A program made the position numbers and the translations under genes. This document shows, in pieces, positions 498 through 7,850 of a stretch of 7,958 bases of DNA. Each line of letters starts with the position of its first letter. Position 1 is the stretch's first letter. Source of the stretch: JAUWCW01 sp030609125 [NCBI: Candidatus Rokuibacteriota bacterium] (GTDB taxonomy: Bacteria; JAUVQV01); assembly GCA_030609125.1 (NCBI GenBank), contig JAUWCW010000081.1:1-7958 (forward strand), written 5' to 3'. The notes under the pieces are model-generated. The model was given only the letters and a program-made list of their open reading frames with translations. It had not been told where the DNA came from and did no database searches.

Positions 498-1928
498 ATG
501 AAAAGGGCGGGCGACAGCACCTCGGCGCAGATGGACCCCGAAGCCCTGGCCGCCGCCGTAGTCTCCGGCGACAGGAAAGGACTGGCACGGGCCATCACGC
601 TCATCGAGTCGGCGCGGCCGGATCACCGGCCGGCGGCGGAATCCCTCCTCGACAGGCTTGCCCCCGACACCGGAAGGGCCGTGAGGATCGGAATCACCGG
701 GGCGCCGGGCGTCGGAAAGTCCACCCTGATCGAGTCCCTCGGCAATCACCTCATCGATATCGGCCACAGCGTGGCGGTCCTCTCCGTCGACCCCTCCTCG
801 TCGCTGAGCGGCGGGTCCATCCTCGGCGACAAGACCCGCATGACGAAGCTTGCCGCGAGGGACGAGGCCTTCATCAGGCCGTCGCCGTCGGGCTCCACTC
901 TCGGCGGTGTGGCCAGAAGGACCAGGGAGGCCCTCCTCGTCTGCGAGGCGGCGGGCTACGATGTCGTCATCGTCGAAACCGTCGGCGTCGGCCAGTCCGA
1001 GACGGCGGTGGCGGAGATGACCGACGTCTTCGTTCTCATGCTCCTTCCGGGAGGAGGGGACGAGCTGCAGGGGGTGAAGAAGGGCATCTTCGAGCTCGTC
1101 GATCTTGTCCTCGTCAACAAGGACGACGGCGACCTTCGCGCCGCGGCCGCCCGGTCCGTGGCGGCGGCGCGGAGCGCGCTGACCCTCACCCGGCCGCGGG
1201 CCCCGGGGTGGACGGTGCCGGTTCTCTCCTGCTCCGCTCTCGAGGGTTCGGGAATAGTCGCGGCCTGGGCGGCCCTGCTGCGCTGCCGGGAATTCCTTGA
1301 CGAAAGCCGGCAGCTCCAGTCCCGCCGGGCCGAACAAGCCCGGGCCTGGATGTGGGCTGAAGCCGCCGAAACCCTCCTGTCGACCCTCAGGGACCACCCG
1401 GCTGTCCGGTCCAGCGTGCCGGGCCTGGAAGCGGTCGTCTCCGCCGGCGAAATCACCCCCCCCAGCGCGGCCCGGCGGCTCCTGGAAGTATTCCTGCCTC
1501 CCCGGAAGGAGACCGGCCCGGGGGGCGGATCCATAGGACGGCTCAATCACATCGCCGTCGCCGTTCCGGACCTGGCCACCGCCGCTGCCCTCTACCGGGA
1601 CCTTCTCGGCGCGGACGTTTCAGAGCCGGTGGATCTGCCCGAGCACGGCGTCAGGGTCGCCTTCGTCAACCTCCCGAACACCAGGGTGGAGCTTCTCGAA
1701 CCGCGGGGAGAAGACTCGCCGATCGACAGCTTCCTGTCCCGAAACTCCTCCGGGGGAATCCACCACGTCTGTTACGAGGTGGAGGATCTGGGCGCCGCCG
1801 CGGAGCGACTGAAGAAGACGGGCGCGCGACTTCTCGGCAGACCGCGAACGGGCGCCCACGGCAAGCCTGTCGTCTTCCTTCACCCGAAGGACTTCTGCGG
1901 AACCCTCATCGAACTGGAAGAAATCTAG
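498..1928 (+). CDS. meaB: MeaB-type GTPase fused to methylmalonyl-CoA epimerase
   Basis: The product is 476 residues with two complete domains. Residues 1-335 are a MeaB/ArgK G3E GTPase: Walker A G-A-P-G-V-G-K-S-T at 68-76, S-V-D-P-S at 96-100, I-L-G-D-K-T-R-M at 108-115, E-T-V-G-V-G-Q-S-E at 160-168, G-D-E-L-Q-G at 187-192, and the guanine-binding N-K-D-D at 207-210. The family protects and loads cobalamin in methylmalonyl-CoA mutase. After a Gly-rich linker (about 339-345), residues 347-476 are a glyoxalase-fold methylmalonyl-CoA epimerase, which interconverts the S and R forms. Its expected metal ligands are H351 (L-N-H-I-A), E398 (V-E-L-L-E-P), the H422/H423 pair and E472 (L-I-E-L). E382 (P-E-H-G-V) matches a conserved glutamate. 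The MeaB tail (A-G-E-I-T-P..A-A-R-R-L-L) runs in frame into the epimerase, with no stop or start codon between them. The ATG at 498 is preferred because an upstream in-frame ATG (324) lies inside the previous gene; its Shine-Dalgarno is weak, and ATG 531 is an alternative. No mutase gene is in the window. Confidence 0.93.
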   Translation: MKRAGDSTSAQMDPEALAAAVVSGDRKGLARAITLIESARPDHRPAAESLLDRLAPDTGRAVRIGITGAPGVGKSTLIESLGNHLIDIGHSVAVLSVDPSSSLSGGSILGDKTRMTKLAARDEAFIRPSPSGSTLGGVARRTREALLVCEAAGYDVVIVETVGVGQSETAVAEMTDVFVLMLLPGGGDELQGVKKGIFELVDLVLVNKDDGDLRAAAARSVAAARSALTLTRPRAPGWTVPVLSCSALEGSGIVAAWAALLRCREFLDESRQLQSRRAEQARAWMWAEAAETLLSTLRDHPAVRSSVPGLEAVVSAGEITPPSAARRLLEVFLPPRKETGPGGGSIGRLNHIAVAVPDLATAAALYRDLLGADVSEPVDLPEHGVRVAFVNLPNTRVELLEPRGEDSPIDSFLSRNSSGGIHHVCYEVEDLGAAAERLKKTGARLLGRPRTGAHGKPVVFLHPKDFCGTLIELEEI

Positions 1929-2135: not shown

Positions 2136-4181
2136 ATGAAAAAGGAACGTCGCGTTGCAGGAACGCCTGAAGCGGCTCATGTCCCCGTATTGCATGAGGC
2201 CATGAAGCCCGTCAGCCGCAAGAGACTTATCAACACCCTGAACCGCGTCAATTTCCGAGACGGGGACATCGTCCTCAACTTCAAGCATCGCACCGAAGTC
2301 GCACGGCTCACCTTCTCCGTAAAACCCCAGCCCTGCCTCGATGAAACCCTGGAGTGCAGGTGGATCGACCAGGCCGGACCTGCGATGGACCTGGGATCCT
2401 ATGAGTTCGAGAATTTCTTTCTCTCCGACGGGCTCCGCAAGATCATCGTCGAAGCGGACTTGCTCGACCAGGATGTGGAAGGCATACGTCTTGCCCTGCC
2501 CGATGTCAGCCACAACGTCAGCACCAGGAGGGTAGAGAGACACCGGTGCAGAGGCGTCAATGCCAGGATGACTTTCGGAGCCGACGCAATCTCCGGGCAG
2601 CTCGTCAGTTTCAGTGCCCTGTCATTCTCCGTGAAGCTTCCATCCCGAGACGACTCGTCCTCACTTCCCGCTCCCGGAGATCAGGCGGACGTCTTCCTCA
2701 GCAGGGACGGACATGCCATCTTTACGGGAGTCTGTGAGGTAGTTCGAAGAGCGATCAAGCGGAGAGGCCTCTACATTGCGTTCAGGCCTCTGAGGAGCAC
2801 GGCGCCGAGAGACAAGCAGAGAAGGCACAGGAGCGTCCGACCCCACATATCCCCGCTACCCAACATCATTTTTCCGCACCCCTTCACCGGGAGGAGAGTG
2901 AATCTCAAAGCTCGGGACATTTCGGGCGCGGGCTTTTCCGTCGAGGAGCATGCCAACCGGGCCGTCCTTCTCGCCGGCATGATCATCCCCGAGGTCCAGA
3001 TCGAGTTCCTCAACGGCTTCGCGATCAACTGCAGGGCCCAGGTCGTATACAGTGACGCGAAGGATGACGGCAGTGTGAAATCCGGTCTGGCAATCGTCGA
3101 CATGGATGTTCTCGACCATACCCGCCTCTCATCCTTTCTCCATCAGGTTGTCTACAAGAACTCCTACGCCTGCACCACCGAGACCGACCTCGATGAACTC
3201 TGGGAATTCTTCTTCGAGAGCGGCTTCATTTATCCGGAGAAGTACGCGATTATCAAGAACCGGAAAGAGCACTTCAAGAGGCTCTACCGCAACCTGTACG
3301 GCAGCAATCCTCATATTGCCCGTCACGTCATCTACCGGGACAAGGGCCTTATTCTCGGTCATGTTTCCATGTTCCGCTACTACCAGAGGACATGGCTCCT
3401 GCACCACCACGCCGCCATCAGCTCCAGCAGGCACAAGGCCGGCCTCGTGGTCATGGAGCACATCATGCAATACGTAAACGAGTTTCATCGGGTTTTTCCG
3501 GAGCTCATGCAGTACATCTGCTGTTACTACCAACCTGAGAACCGTTTCGCCAATCGCGTCTTCGGGGCGGCGGCCAGGACCATCGACGATCGGCGGAAGT
3601 GCTCTCTCGACGCATTTGCCTATTTTCACCTGCAGGCAGGCGCCCCCCCGGACGCTCTCCCCGGAGGCTGGGCCCTCGAGAAGCCGCAGGAGGGCGACCT
3701 GACGAGACTGCAGAGGAGATACGCGCAGCACTCCGGCGGGCTGATGCTCGAATGCCTCGACCTCGTCAATAGACCGTTGAAGCACGAGAAGCGAATGTCA
3801 AGTGAGTACCGGCGGCTGGGTTTCACCCGTGAGCGCCGTCTCTATTCGCTCAAGAAGGGCGGTGTCCTTTACGCCGTCATGGCGGTGAACGTCTCGGACG
3901 TGGGACTCAACATGTCCGACTTGACCAATTGCGTCCAGGCTTTTGTGATCGAACCCGGGCAGCTTCCGGCGGAGACGCTCCTTCAGGCTCTTGCCGTCCT
4001 CGCCCGGCATTACGAGCACAGTTCCGTCCCGGCCCTCATCTACCCGAAAGAGTACGCTGACATCCAATCCATTCCCTACAGCAAGACGTACATGATGACG
4101 GTCCTCGACCTGGACCACGTCGGTGCCGGCCTCGCGTTCGTGGATGACCTGAAGACTCCATCGAAAAAAGCCCGTTCCTGA
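2136..4181 (+). CDS. Two-PilZ protein with GNAT-like C-terminal half, probable cyclic-di-GMP effector
   Basis: The product is 681 residues, with no signal peptide or membrane helix visible, so it is probably cytoplasmic. Residues 1-125 are not recognised. Residues about 130-220 look like a PilZ domain with an R-x-x-x-R motif (R131-R135), but S-F-S-A-L-S (158-163) replaces D-x-S-x-x-G. Residues about 222-335 are a second PilZ domain with R225-x-x-x-R229 and an intact D261-I-S-G-A-G266, the two motifs that clasp cyclic di-GMP. Residues about 350-500 resemble a GNAT acyltransferase fold: G-L-I-L-G-H-V, then W-L-L-H-H-H-A-A (420-427), then R432-H-K-A-G-L in the place of the acyl-CoA loop, then N-R-F-A-N-R-V-F-G. 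Residues about 510-660 look like a second, more diverged GNAT-like unit (G-V-L-Y-A-V-M-A-V-N at 576-585). The catalytic substrate is unknown and activity is not proven. The stop overlaps the start of the HD-GYP gene by one base, so the two are probably translated together. Confidence 0.72.
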   Translation: MKKERRVAGTPEAAHVPVLHEAMKPVSRKRLINTLNRVNFRDGDIVLNFKHRTEVARLTFSVKPQPCLDETLECRWIDQAGPAMDLGSYEFENFFLSDGLRKIIVEADLLDQDVEGIRLALPDVSHNVSTRRVERHRCRGVNARMTFGADAISGQLVSFSALSFSVKLPSRDDSSSLPAPGDQADVFLSRDGHAIFTGVCEVVRRAIKRRGLYIAFRPLRSTAPRDKQRRHRSVRPHISPLPNIIFPHPFTGRRVNLKARDISGAGFSVEEHANRAVLLAGMIIPEVQIEFLNGFAINCRAQVVYSDAKDDGSVKSGLAIVDMDVLDHTRLSSFLHQVVYKNSYACTTETDLDELWEFFFESGFIYPEKYAIIKNRKEHFKRLYRNLYGSNPHIARHVIYRDKGLILGHVSMFRYYQRTWLLHHHAAISSSRHKAGLVVMEHIMQYVNEFHRVFPELMQYICCYYQPENRFANRVFGAAARTIDDRRKCSLDAFAYFHLQAGAPPDALPGGWALEKPQEGDLTRLQRRYAQHSGGLMLECLDLVNRPLKHEKRMSSEYRRLGFTRERRLYSLKKGGVLYAVMAVNVSDVGLNMSDLTNCVQAFVIEPGQLPAETLLQALAVLARHYEHSSVPALIYPKEYADIQSIPYSKTYMMTVLDLDHVGAGLAFVDDLKTPSKKARS

Positions 4182-6181
4182 TGCAAGACATGGGCAGCAC
4201 GATGGAAGCATCACACACATACGACACCCCCCTCTACAACAGTGTGATCATCCAGTCCTACATCAAGCTTATCAGGAAAAAATACAGCCACGTGGACGTC
4301 AGGGAACTTCTCCACTTCGCGGGCATGGAGTCCTACCAGGTGGAGGACGGAGGACACTGGTTTACCCAGCGGCAGGTCAACCGCTTCCACGAAAAACTCC
4401 AGGAGATGACGGGCAACGAGGAGATCGCCCGCGAGGCCGGGCGCTACACCGCTTCCCCGGAGGCCCTCGGCATCATCGGCAAGTACGTGATCGGGCTCGT
4501 CAGTCCCGACCGGGCCTACGCTCTCGCCGGAAAGATGTCCAACAAGTTCACGAAGTCCTCCAGATACGAATCACGCAAGATCGGCCCCACTAAAGTTGAG
4601 ATCACCGTCACCCCCAACGAAGGAACGAAGGAAGAACCTTTTCAGTGTGAGAACCGAAAGGGCTACATAGAGTCCGTGACGACTCACTTCAACTTCAAGA
4701 TTCCCCGCATCGAGCACCCCCTGTGCATTTTCAGAGGTGACGGAGTATGCCGTTACGTCATCTCCTGGCAGCCCTCCTCTTCGGTGTCGTCGAAGAATGT
4801 GCGCAAAGTCGTTACATTGATCCTTGCTCTGGGTGTTCTCGCCGCCGCCCTCGGCCTCCTGCCGGGGATCTCTCCCACGGGGCTGGGCCTCTTCTCGCTC
4901 TCCCTGCTCCTGCTCCTGAGCTGGCGCATCGCCTTTCTCGACGCCCGTGACCTGAGGTCTTCGGTCGCCCAGCACGAGAAGTCCAGCGACGACCTCATCG
5001 AACAGATCAATGTGAACTATCAGAACTCCCTCCTTGTCAACGAGATCGGCCAGGCCCTGTCCAAGGAATCCAGCATCGACGATATCCTTGACAGCGTTGT
5101 GCACATCCTCGAGAAGAGGCTCGATTTCGACCGCGGACTCATTCTGATGGCCAACAACGAGAAGACAAGGCTGGTCCCCAGGGCCGGCTACGGCTATGAG
5201 CCGGAACTGTTCGGCAAGTTCGTGAGGGGCGGCGGCTTTCGCCTGGACCACAAGAAGTCCAAAGGTGTCTTTGTCCTGTCTTTCCGTGAAAAAAAACCCT
5301 ACCTGGTAAACGACATCAACGAGATCTTCAGGAACCTCTCGCCCCGCAGCTTGAGGTTCGCCATGCAGATGGGGGTCAAATCCTTCATCTGCTGCCCCAT
5401 CGTCTACGAAAATGAACCGCTCGGAATTCTGGCCGTCGACAACAGGAGGACCAAGAGGCCTCTCCTCCAGCGGGACGTGAATCTCCTTATGGGCATAGCC
5501 CCCCAGATCGGCGTCTGCATCCACAACGTCAGGCTGGTCGAGGCGCGGCTGAGCCAGTTCCAGTCGATCATCCAGGTCCTCGTCGCCTCCACGGAGGCGA
5601 GGGACCCCATCACCGCCGGTCACTCCCTGAAAGTGACGGAGTACGCCATGGGGATCTGCCGGGAGCTGGGGCTCTCCCACGAATACACGGAGATGATACG
5701 GGTGGCGGCCTCCCTGCACGACTACGGCAAGATCGGCGTGTACGACTCGATCCTGAAGAAACCGGGAAGACTGACCGCCGATGAGTACGAGATCGTCAAG
5801 ACACACGTCGTCAAGACAGAGGACATCCTCAAGCAGATCAACTTTGAGGGGATTTACCAGGAAGTGCCCGACATCGCCAGCGCCCACCACGAGAAGGTCG
5901 ACGGGAGCGGATATCCCCGGAACCTGAAGGGGGACCAGATCCCATTCGGCGCGAAAATCCTCGCCGTCGCCGACGTTTTCGAAGCCCTGACGTCAAAGCG
6001 GCACTACCGCGACCCCATGCCTCTCAACGAGGTCTTCGACCACATTGTCGGGAACATCGGCGTCCACTTCGACCGCAAATGCGTCGAGGCCCTGATCAGG
6101 TACTACAACGCCAACGAGGCCGAGACGCCTTACGTCTACGAGGGATACTCCCTGCAGGGCGCGAACGGCAGCACTCACTGA
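4181..6181 (+). CDS. Membrane sensor with GAF and HD-GYP domains, cyclic-di-GMP phosphodiesterase
   Basis: The product is 666 residues. Residues about 15-200 form a cytoplasmic sensor domain that I know only as a V4R/heme-NO-like N-terminal module of signalling proteins. It has C156, and C182 and C190 within H-P-L-C-I-F-R-G-D-G-V-C-R-Y, which could bind a metal or a small ligand. Two hydrophobic helices follow at about 208-228 and 234-254, then a short coiled stretch. A GAF domain spans about 285-452, and an HD-GYP domain about 462-640. The HD-GYP residues are all present: H513-D514 (S-L-H-D-Y-G-K-I-G), H542, H569-H570-E571, G-S-G-Y-P at 575-579 and D598 (A-V-A-D). Such domains hydrolyse cyclic di-GMP to pGpG or GMP using two or three metal ions. 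The ATG at 4181 overlaps the previous TGA (TGATG). In-frame ATGs at 4190 and 4202 are alternatives; none has a strong Shine-Dalgarno, which fits translational coupling. Confidence 0.9.
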   Translation: MQDMGSTMEASHTYDTPLYNSVIIQSYIKLIRKKYSHVDVRELLHFAGMESYQVEDGGHWFTQRQVNRFHEKLQEMTGNEEIAREAGRYTASPEALGIIGKYVIGLVSPDRAYALAGKMSNKFTKSSRYESRKIGPTKVEITVTPNEGTKEEPFQCENRKGYIESVTTHFNFKIPRIEHPLCIFRGDGVCRYVISWQPSSSVSSKNVRKVVTLILALGVLAAALGLLPGISPTGLGLFSLSLLLLLSWRIAFLDARDLRSSVAQHEKSSDDLIEQINVNYQNSLLVNEIGQALSKESSIDDILDSVVHILEKRLDFDRGLILMANNEKTRLVPRAGYGYEPELFGKFVRGGGFRLDHKKSKGVFVLSFREKKPYLVNDINEIFRNLSPRSLRFAMQMGVKSFICCPIVYENEPLGILAVDNRRTKRPLLQRDVNLLMGIAPQIGVCIHNVRLVEARLSQFQSIIQVLVASTEARDPITAGHSLKVTEYAMGICRELGLSHEYTEMIRVAASLHDYGKIGVYDSILKKPGRLTADEYEIVKTHVVKTEDILKQINFEGIYQEVPDIASAHHEKVDGSGYPRNLKGDQIPFGAKILAVADVFEALTSKRHYRDPMPLNEVFDHIVGNIGVHFDRKCVEALIRYYNANEAETPYVYEGYSLQGANGSTH

Positions 6182-6367: not shown

Positions 6368-7177
6368 TCAGGGACCGGGTTTTTTCCCGACCACGGAGAT
6401 GAGCGGCGAATAGGTAAACCGGCGCGGGTCTGCGAAAAACCGGTCGAACTCCTCGCGAAAGTCCTCGAATCCCCCCTCGTATTCGTCGAAGTCATAGCCG
6501 ATCTTCTTCGGGGCCACCTCCACCTTCTTCATCCAGTTGAAGGCGTCACTCTCCTCGAGATAACCATAGATGAGGTGGTGCCCCTCGATGGTGACCTCGA
6601 TGTCCTGAAAACCGAGGTCGAAGAGATACGAGTACAGCTTCCGCCCCGCGTAGGGGTCGAAGTTCGCGTTCTCCGAGAGGGCGTCCATGACGGCATGGAG
6701 CGTCCGCTGAAGTCGGGGTGGCATCTCGTAGTGACAGAGGCAGTTGTTGTCGAGGTCGAGCAGGCAGATACGTCCGCCGGGCTTCAGGATGTCAGTGACG
6801 TTTCGCACGATGTCGAGGCTTCCCCTCCTGTAATACTCGAGTACGAAGCGGATCCAGAGCAGGTCGAACTCACCCAGGTGATCCAGTGGCTGCCGGATGT
6901 CGGCCTGGTGGAACTCTATCCCGGGAGATTCGTGAGGCTCCCGGGCAAAGGCGATCCTCTCCCCGGATATGTCCACCCCGACGGCCCTCCCTCCCGGCTG
7001 GGCCAGACCGTGCAGAACCGACGTGGTCTTGCCCGAGCCGCAGCCGAGGTCGGCCACCCTCATGCCAGGTTCGATGCCGGCCCAGAGCGCCTGCCGCACA
7101 ACCGCCTCCCTGTCCGTCTTGCGATCCAGCCGGAGGGCCTCCTCCTCGCTCTCCATGAGGTAGTGCTTTTCTTTCAT
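6368..7177 (-). CDS. Class I SAM-dependent methyltransferase
   Basis: The product is 269 residues. The Rossmann-fold methyltransferase core is clear: motif I V-A-D-L-G-C-G-S-G at 41-49, the acidic ribose-binding residue in V-G-V-D-I at 67-70 (D69), A-D-I-R at 92-95, F-D-L-L-W at 104-108, and L-K-P-G-G at 131-135 followed by a strand ending in D-L-D. It transfers a methyl group from S-adenosylmethionine. Residues about 150-255 form a C-terminal extension rich in acidic and aromatic residues (Y-D-F-D-E-Y-E-G-G-F-E-D-F) that probably recognises the substrate, which I cannot name. The ATG at 7177 is chosen because GAGGGG (7184-7189 on the minus strand) sits 6 bases upstream; an in-frame TTG at 7198 has no such support. 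The ribosome site overlaps the stop of the upstream cyclic-nucleotide-binding gene, so the two are probably one operon and may be translationally coupled. Confidence 0.88.
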   Translation of the reverse strand: MKEKHYLMESEEEALRLDRKTDREAVVRQALWAGIEPGMRVADLGCGSGKTTSVLHGLAQPGGRAVGVDISGERIAFAREPHESPGIEFHQADIRQPLDHLGEFDLLWIRFVLEYYRRGSLDIVRNVTDILKPGGRICLLDLDNNCLCHYEMPPRLQRTLHAVMDALSENANFDPYAGRKLYSYLFDLGFQDIEVTIEGHHLIYGYLEESDAFNWMKKVEVAPKKIGYDFDEYEGGFEDFREEFDRFFADPRRFTYSPLISVVGKKPGP

Positions 7178-7187
7178 TGCCCACCCC

Positions 7188-7655
7188 TCAGAAAACAACC
7201 ACCAGTCTTTCTTCGAGCTGCCGGAGGCGCAGTGAAAGAACCCGGCTTATTCCCTTGAGAATCTTGATGCCGAGGACCGGGTAGTCCTCTATGAAGGCGT
7301 CCAGGGCGCTCTTTCGCAGGACCAGCAGTTCTGTATTCTTAGTGGCCTCAACGGTGGCCGACCGCGGCTGGCCGTCAAAGAGGGCCAGCTCACCAAGAAC
7401 GGCGCCCTTGGTCATGCGCGCAAGAACGATCGCTTTTCCCTGGAACTCGGTCTGCTTTTTCACTTCCACCTCGCCGCTCATCAAAAAAGCGATGCAATCG
7501 GCCGGAGCTCCTTCCCTGAAGACCTTGCCGCCGGCCCCGAAGTGGGCCCGCTCGAAATAGGGAGCCAGCTTCTCCAGCTCATCCTCCTCAAAGAGGTGGA
7601 AGAGGTTGGTTTCGTCCTTGAGCTCTCGGACGATCTTCTTGATCTTCGTCTCCAT
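7188..7655 (-). CDS. Stand-alone cyclic-nucleotide-binding domain protein
   Basis: The product is 155 residues and is almost entirely one CAP effector-type beta-roll. The phosphate-binding cassette is well kept: G88-E-L-A-L-F-D-G-Q-P-R98-S-A, where E89 and R98 correspond to the residues that hold the ribose and cyclic phosphate in CAP. F-R-E-G-A-P-A-D and L-M-S-G-E-V-E-V upstream are also typical. The C-terminal helix (about 128-150) ends without a DNA-binding helix-turn-helix, so this is not a CRP-type regulator. It more likely acts by protein contact or as a ligand buffer. The ATG at 7655 is preferred over the adjacent GTG at 7658 because GAGGGGA lies 5 bases before it. It is the first gene of a pair with the methyltransferase, 10 bases apart. 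Binding of cAMP or cGMP is inferred, not shown. Confidence 0.9.
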   Translation of the reverse strand: METKIKKIVRELKDETNLFHLFEEDELEKLAPYFERAHFGAGGKVFREGAPADCIAFLMSGEVEVKKQTEFQGKAIVLARMTKGAVLGELALFDGQPRSATVEATKNTELLVLRKSALDAFIEDYPVLGIKILKGISRVLSLRLRQLEERLVVVF

Positions 7656-7850
7656 CACACTCCCCTCGCGCGCCCCGACGGCGCCCGGCGCGGGGACCGC
7701 CTCCGCAGGCGACCCGCAGCCTCAAGGACATCATAATACATTTTCCGGACACCTGCCCCCGTCCACACCAGGCATCGACGAGGGAGCCACCGGCGTGGAA
7801 ACTATTTATTCCAAGTTACATTGCTGTATTTCAGAAAACCTTGTCATATA

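What the first reader, a model, noticed from the sequence alone, without database searches (positions are those of the whole stretch)
2136..4181. PilZ-PilZ-GNAT-like protein: a possible cyclic-di-GMP-controlled acyltransferase
An intact PilZ motif set (R225..R229, D261-I-S-G-A-G) precedes more than 300 residues that look like one or two GNAT folds. Most PilZ proteins control motility or polysaccharide machines; a PilZ receptor joined to acyltransferase-like domains would be a direct enzyme switch. The tandem GNAT layout recalls lipid- or aminoacyl-transferring enzymes, but the substrate is unknown.
Basis: partly seen in the sequence, partly recalled or inferred. Interest (0 to 1): 0.62.

Follow-up and report, generated by a model that had tools for sequence, protein, structure and literature searches.

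The report
c-di-GMP-gated acyltransferase with partner genes
This gene encodes a likely acyl-transferring enzyme fused to receptor domains for the bacterial messenger cyclic-di-GMP; the fusion is already known as PixB in Myxococcus, but here it belongs to a wide family that is found beside a methyltransferase, a membrane sensor and sometimes a fatty-acid-type channel, which hints at what it works on.

Summary
An AlphaFold2 model (pLDDT 89) shows a YcgR-N-like domain, two PilZ domains and a tandem GNAT. The idea is not new: M. xanthus PixB has two PilZ domains and a GNAT domain, binds c-di-GMP in vitro and needs the acetyltransferase domain; its substrate is unknown. The window protein falls in the same clade as a PixB-like protein (97/95 support). 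The 'intact motif set' is only partly right: each PilZ keeps one canonical half of the c-di-GMP motif.

What seems new is a conserved gene set. Of 80 named loci, 57 hold a SAM methyltransferase gene, 66 a sensor sharing the N-terminal domain of the window's GAF-HD-GYP protein, and 26 a FadL channel gene. In a 40-row tree, methyltransferase and sensor each occur at 11 of 14 PixB-clade loci and 0 of 26 others. In 386 sampled genomes, PixB-type proteins and strong methyltransferase matches occur in the same six.

Best reading: a c-di-GMP-gated tandem-GNAT acyltransferase working with the methyltransferase, probably on a small, perhaps hydrophobic molecule, beside a sensor that mostly carries a phosphodiesterase domain. 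Activity, substrate and feedback are inferred, not shown.

The parts
2136..4181 (+). PixB-type gene: N-terminal domain, PilZ, PilZ, tandem GNAT (681 aa)
2199..2519 (+). YcgR-N-like domain, residues about 22-128
   Evidence: model and VCA0042/YcgR rows
2517..2798 (+). PilZ domain 1, residues about 128-221
   Evidence: 8u0i Z 11.3, rmsd 2.1, 82 aligned
2526..2540 (+). RxxxR of PilZ 1, R131-R135
   Evidence: 72 and 73 of 73 relatives
2817..3161 (+). PilZ domain 2, residues about 228-342
   Evidence: 4xrn Z 12.9, 4rt1 Z 12.6
2916..2933 (+). D-x-S-x-x-G of PilZ 2, D261-G266
   Evidence: D 69, S 71, G 73 of 73
3162..3635 (+). GNAT lobe 1, residues about 343-500; H409, W420, H424, G436, F476 invariant in 73 of 73
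3669..4127 (+). GNAT lobe 2, residues about 512-664
4181..6181 (+). partner: N-terminal sensor domain, membrane segment (by eye), GAF, HD-GYP
   Evidence: GAF and HD_5 over Pfam cut-off; sensor domain at 66 of 80 named loci
4181..4795 (+). conserved N-terminal sensor domain with C156, H179, C182, C190
6368..7198 (-). partner: class I SAM methyltransferase; conserved start near 7177

Best explanation
The window encodes a PixB-type protein: PilZ domains joined to a tandem-GNAT acyltransferase. [quoted passage not shown] The enzyme acts in one pathway with the conserved methyltransferase, most likely on a small and perhaps hydrophobic molecule. The sensor gene that overlaps its stop codon carries an HD-GYP domain, so the sensor would change c-di-GMP near the enzyme in answer to its own ligand. 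Shown here: fold, clade, conserved partner genes. Shown by others for PixB: c-di-GMP binding in vitro and the need for the acetyltransferase domain. Inferred: acyl transfer by this protein, a pathway shared with the methyltransferase, the kind of molecule, and the feedback.
For: Fold: two PilZ domains and a tandem GNAT, pLDDT 89.0, pTM 0.85. Clade: with L098, L099, L100 (100/100), then a 14-row clade with PixB-like L105 (97/95); L105 has RxxxR exactly at 121 and 331, the residues mutated in PixB. Partners in the 40-row set: methyltransferase 11 of 14 in the clade, 0 of 26 outside; sensor domain 11 of 14 and 0 of 26. Among 80 named loci: methyltransferase 57, sensor 66, FadL 26. Of 386 genomes, 6 have a PixB-type protein and the same 6 have methyltransferase matches of 121 bits or more (P 2.3e-13, ignoring relatedness). 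HD-GYP motifs in 51 of 66 first-listed sensors. Hints to a hydrophobic molecule: FadL at 26 of 80 loci against about 0.7% expected by a rough rate; closest tandem-GNAT folds include a histidine acetyltransferase with N-myristoyl-histidine and N-myristoyltransferases. PixB experiments: PMC8316039 passages.
Against: No binding or activity was tested for this protein. Neither PilZ domain keeps both halves of the textbook motif. The GNAT rows are fold matches at 8-13% identity with rmsd 4-7 and name no substrate. The methyltransferase was not found at 23 of 80 loci; some contigs are short, but it is missing at 9 of 36 loci with 4.5 kb or more on both sides. FadL is missing at 54 of 80 loci, and among the 40 tree loci it is at 3 only, not at PixB-like L105. 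The sensor domain was not matched in G571, which has the other two, and is matched weakly in 5 genomes without the PixB-type protein. In the window the methyltransferase is convergent, not in the same operon. In M. xanthus the acetyltransferase domain alone, overexpressed, restored motility, so c-di-GMP is not always needed.
Confidence: 0.6

Rival explanations
1. It is a c-di-GMP-controlled protein acetyltransferase that modifies signalling or motility proteins; the neighbouring methyltransferase and sensor are merely linked genes.
For: PixB acts on reversals in a Frz-dependent way; its authors leave small-molecule and protein substrates open and compare it with a cAMP-dependent acetyltransferase of Mycobacterium tuberculosis (PMC8316039 passages).
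Against: The clade-specific link to a small-molecule-type methyltransferase over many taxa fits a shared small-molecule pathway better; the methyltransferase could, however, act on proteins too.
Confidence: 0.25
2. It modifies a surface polysaccharide or cell-wall precursor, as proposed for the c-di-GMP-binding tandem GNAT HfsK.
For: HfsK is a tandem GNAT that binds c-di-GMP, and FemX is its closest solved relative (PMC5362036 passages).
Against: The PixB deletion did not change exopolysaccharide accumulation. No polysaccharide gene family stood out among the shared neighbours that I could read (cut output). No direct comparison with HfsK or FemX was made.
Confidence: 0.15
3. The GNAT part is no longer an enzyme but a binding platform, and the protein acts by contact.
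For: Lobe 2 shows no pyrophosphate-loop-like stretch after its fourth strand (by eye), and lobe 1 only a short K/R-A-G.
Against: H409, W420, H424, G436 and F476 of lobe 1 are invariant in 73 of 73, and H409, R414, W420 and H424 in 31 of 31 including the PixB-like row. The PixB acetyltransferase domain is needed in vivo, though a catalytic mutant was not among what I read.
Confidence: 0.1

Closest known systems
PixB (MXAN_2604) of Myxococcus xanthus
   Same: Two PilZ domains, then a GNAT part; the window protein is in one clade with L105, which matches PixB's R121 and R331 and is followed by two genes, as the paper says of pixB
   Different: About 18% identity to L105; at L105 the sensor is a kinase and the methyltransferase follows directly, while in the window the sensor is HD-GYP and the methyltransferase convergent
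HfsK of Caulobacter crescentus
   Same: Tandem GNAT under c-di-GMP (PMC5362036 passages)
   Different: The passages describe c-di-GMP binding through a short C-terminal extension and core residues, not through PilZ domains; no alignment was made here
YcgR / VCA0042-type proteins
   Same: N-terminal domain plus PilZ aligns with them
   Different: A second PilZ and a tandem GNAT follow
DmpR/MopR V4R sensors and H-NOX (for the partner's sensor domain)
   Same: C-x25-C-x7-C as in DmpR's zinc site C151, C177, C185 (PMC7264223 passages), exact in 26 of 31 members
   Different: No significant profile match

Membership tests
PixB-type PilZ-PilZ-GNAT proteins | two PilZ domains followed by a GNAT part | tested here: met
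   model and fold rows
PixB-type PilZ-PilZ-GNAT proteins | one clade with a PixB-like protein | tested here: met
PixB-type PilZ-PilZ-GNAT proteins | RxxxR in both PilZ domains | tested here: inconclusive
   PilZ 1 yes; PilZ 2 has R225-xxx-R229 here (K at 229 in 58 of 73) and invariant R232/R235 spaced RxxR
PixB-type PilZ-PilZ-GNAT proteins | binds c-di-GMP | not testable with these tools
   shown for PixB by others
GNAT acyltransferases | GNAT fold | tested here: met
   tandem GNAT rows, best Z 13.7; sequence alone stays below cut-off
GNAT acyltransferases | acyl-CoA binding and transfer | not testable with these tools
   no assay
FeeM or DUF2156 acyltransferases | closest fold is FeeM or DUF2156 | tested here: inconclusive
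   not among the 50 rows shown; not excluded
HfsK / FemX-type tandem GNAT | sequence or fold kinship with HfsK or FemX | not tested
   no direct comparison
HD-GYP phosphodiesterases (partner gene 4181-6181) | HD and GYP motifs | tested here: met
   PF13487 at 127.9 bits (cut-off 27.2); HDYGK and HHE...GYP in the translation
V4R or H-NOX sensors (partner's N-terminal domain) | profile match to the family | tested here: inconclusive
   V4R in 3 of 31, best E 0.0013; H-NOX chains E 0.057-0.23; hhalign with XylR_N proteins probability 1.4
class I SAM methyltransferases (6368-7198) | SAM methyltransferase fold and core | tested here: met
   Methyltransf_31 58.9 bits (cut-off 27); model pLDDT 92.2, 3mgg Z 23.3

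The most novel reading that the evidence does not exclude
The gene set is a diffusible, lipid-like signal circuit wired to c-di-GMP: the PilZ-GNAT protein is a c-di-GMP-gated synthase, the methyltransferase finishes the signal, a FadL channel lets it through the outer membrane, and the sensor protein binds it and feeds back on c-di-GMP by HD-GYP, or onward by a kinase or a nucleotide cyclase. PixB's effects on reversals and fruiting would then be effects of a missing cell-cell signal.
Probability: 0.2. Interest if true: 0.85.

Novelty: new variant of a known kind. Interest (0 to 1): 0.55.

Why it matters
PixB is needed for fruiting-body formation in Myxococcus, yet its substrate is unknown. 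That its wider family is found with a methyltransferase, a sensor and often a FadL channel in Desulfobacterota, Geobacter relatives, Brocadia and others gives concrete partner genes to delete and a class of molecules to look for. If the small-molecule reading holds, c-di-GMP would control the making of a small molecule directly.

Tried and rejected
Single-sequence searches gave nothing above cut-off; a 73-row profile gave two chance-level PDB rows. Defence: PADLOC gave no family for the PilZ-GNAT protein; the methyltransferase matched mad2 over its SAM core only (71 bits), the HD-GYP protein matched Cas3 models weakly, and the cNMP-binding protein matched Pycsar/TIR models over its binding domain; not pursued. 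The cNMP-binding gene (7188-7658) as a further partner: a relative at 1 of 80 named loci, so rejected. The sensor domain as a V4R or H-NOX domain: not shown. Methyltransferase substrate: sequence matches include juvenile hormone acid and phosphoethanolamine methyltransferases, fold matches are general; left open.

Limits of the counts. P values ignore relatedness. The FadL rate (30 copies in 61 Mb of 16 genomes) was measured mostly in genomes picked because FadL lay at the locus, so it is rough. The profiles for the 80-locus counts were built from window, L098, L101, L105, L106 and L110 (methyltransferase) and window, L099, L100 and L102 (sensor); L154 and L166 among the 80 are the same records as L099 and L100. 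The profiles (A5, A7) hold the window and 47 and 30 named loci, L154 among both and L166 in A7. In one search at most 2, at most 6 and at most 7 candidates a genome were scored. Thirteen of the 20 matching genomes have only short stretches at 45 bits or less and were not counted as PilZ-GNAT. Sensor outputs were classed by simple patterns. Alignments: A4 used 72 of 78 full-length ORFs from the 80 loci, plus the window; A5 47 of 57 methyltransferase loci, plus the window; A7 30 of 66 sensor loci, plus the window; A6 25 named and 5 unnamed loci, plus the window. The output was cut in the middle.

Full report
What was claimed and what is there. The frame exists, 681 aa; AAGGA precedes its ATG and its stop overlaps the ATG of the next gene. 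Alone, the protein gives only a sub-threshold GNAT match in Pfam (E 0.097) and nothing in NCBIfam or the PDB. Relatives settle it: 216 related stretches were confirmed in the genome collection and the best 80 kept, 35-47% identical, and Pfam finds PilZ in 25 of 31 family members at E up to 0.1.

Structure. AlphaFold2 on 73 sequences gives pLDDT 89.0, pTM 0.85. PilZ 2 (228-337) lies on 4xrn, a c-di-GMP complex (Z 12.9, rmsd 1.9, 101 aligned); PilZ 1 (128-220) on 8u0i (Z 11.3, 2.1, 82); the N-terminal part with PilZ on VCA0042 (2rde, Z 12.2, 5.6, 203); the C-terminal half on tandem GNATs: 9emp, a histidine acetyltransferase with N-myristoyl-histidine (315-664, Z 13.7, 5.7, 266), VipF (7wx7, Z 11.6), glucosamine N-acetyltransferase (5kf1, Z 10.6) and N-myristoyltransferases (Z about 10.3 to 10.8). 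Foldseek's first rows agree (5kf1, E 9.0e-9). The layout is YcgR-N-like, PilZ, PilZ, GNAT, GNAT.

Motifs. Over 73 relatives R131 is 72, R135 73, D158 52 (S in the window), D261 69, S263 71, G266 73, R232 and R235 73 each, R225 62; position 229 is K in 58 and R in 12. Each PilZ keeps one canonical half. This does not exclude binding: PixB binds c-di-GMP although both its PilZ domains lack the conserved Ser (PMC8316039 passages). In GNAT lobe 1, H409, W420, H424, G436 and F476 are invariant in 73 of 73, and H409, R414, W420 and H424 in 31 members that include PixB-like L105. Which lobe binds an acyl donor was not computed; a K/R-A-G stretch at 434-436 points to lobe 1 (by eye).

It is PixB-type. 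PixB (MXAN_2604) has two PilZ domains and a GNAT acetyltransferase domain and binds c-di-GMP in vitro. [quoted passage not shown] Of three paralogues in G231, an unnamed 9.2 Mb genome, only L105 has RxxxR exactly at 121 and 331, the residues mutated in PixB. In a 40-row tree the window protein joins L098, L099 and L100 (100/100), then a 14-row clade with L105 (97/95).

The gene set. Around the 40 tree rows, the methyltransferase profile and the sensor profile each hit 11 loci, all within the 14-row clade, none of the other 26. At L105 the methyltransferase gene overlaps the end of the pixB-like gene by 4 bases and a kinase with the sensor domain follows, overlapping again by 4 (coordinates). 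Around the 80 named loci: methyltransferase 57, sensor 66, FadL 26. Among 60 loci with 3.5 kb or more downstream: 48, 56 and 26; among 36 with 4.5 kb or more on both sides: 27, 34 and 13. The window's order (PilZ-GNAT, sensor, convergent methyltransferase) is found at 40 of 80, by my count. Of 66 first-listed sensors, 51 carry HD-GYP motifs, 8 kinase-like motifs and 7 were not classed. Pfam shows a kinase in L187, a cyclase domain in L202 and L102, and an HD domain in L166.

Co-occurrence. In 386 sampled genomes the PilZ-GNAT profile matches seven at 164 bits or more: G000, G029, G034, G402, G422, G505, G571; thirteen more have short stretches at 45 bits or less. The methyltransferase profile matches G000, G029, G402, G422, G505 and G571 at 121 bits or more, plus a partial 80-bit match in G044. 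G034's proteins lie outside the PixB clade. The sensor profile matches G000, G029, G402, G422 and G505, not G571, and five other genomes at 46-74 bits. So the methyltransferase link is tight, the sensor link looser.

A hydrophobic molecule? FadL/TodX-family genes (PF03349) lie at 26 of 80 loci, against about 0.7% expected from 30 copies in 61 Mb of 16 genomes (a rough rate). In G505 a third sensor copy lies within 10 bases of a FadL gene elsewhere in the genome (model coordinates). Against this, FadL is at only 3 of the 40 tree loci (L098; weaker L093, L094) and not at L105, and the one FadL of the window's genome lies on another contig, so linkage cannot be judged there. Other clades of the family have other enzymes as neighbours: a haem-oxygenase-like iron protein (Pfam below cut-off in L128, none in L104) or a B12-binding radical SAM enzyme. 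These are hints only.

Mechanism. Most likely c-di-GMP binding by the PilZ part alters the tandem GNAT, which transfers an acyl group in a pathway shared with the methyltransferase; the sensor protein answers to a ligand and, through HD-GYP, lowers c-di-GMP. Shown here: fold, clade, conserved partners. Shown elsewhere for PixB: binding and the need for the domains. Inferred: substrate, order of steps, feedback.

Literature. Ten full-text searches (three of them on side questions) did not list, in titles and abstract starts, a paper on the PilZ-GNAT/methyltransferase/sensor/FadL set; one search listed 15 of 33 papers. The 'PixB' search listed 5 papers, of which I read parts of one. Most subscription papers are not held, so this is weak evidence of novelty. 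Passages only were seen of PMC5362036, PMC7264223 and PMC10715001.

Noticed in passing
window 498-1928 (+): MeaB GTPase and methylmalonyl-CoA epimerase appear fused in one frame; both NCBIfam equivalog cut-offs are passed (459.5 and 157.3 bits).
   Followed up: no
window 7188-7658 (-): A small cyclic-nucleotide-binding protein gene beside the methyltransferase; a relative at only 1 of 80 named loci, though some sensors of this kind carry a cyclase domain.
   Followed up: partly
window 4181-4795 (+): Sensor domain with C156, H179, C182, C190; the Cys spacing equals that of DmpR's zinc site, with weak matches to H-NOX, V4R and AraC-type N-terminal domains, none significant.
   Followed up: partly
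L090, L104, L121, L123, L126, L127, L128: PilZ-GNAT relatives outside the PixB clade with a haem-oxygenase-like iron protein gene beside them; Pfam support is below cut-off.
   Followed up: partly
L112, L115, L120; also near L132, L134, L140, L182, L195: B12-binding radical SAM enzyme genes beside some PilZ-GNAT relatives, inside and outside the PixB clade (Pfam for L115, L120 and L140 only).
   Followed up: no
G505 contig 1, about 128438-130228: A further copy of the sensor protein lies right beside a FadL gene, away from the PilZ-GNAT gene.
   Followed up: no
L145, L147, L167: A second sensor copy, with a kinase-like pattern, lies upstream of the PilZ-GNAT gene in the Geomonas records.
   Followed up: no
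L132, L133, L136, L137: Records titled Thermoplasmatales, Planctomycetota and Methanoperedens hold relatives at 41-43% identity; gene transfer and mis-binned contigs were not told apart.
   Followed up: no
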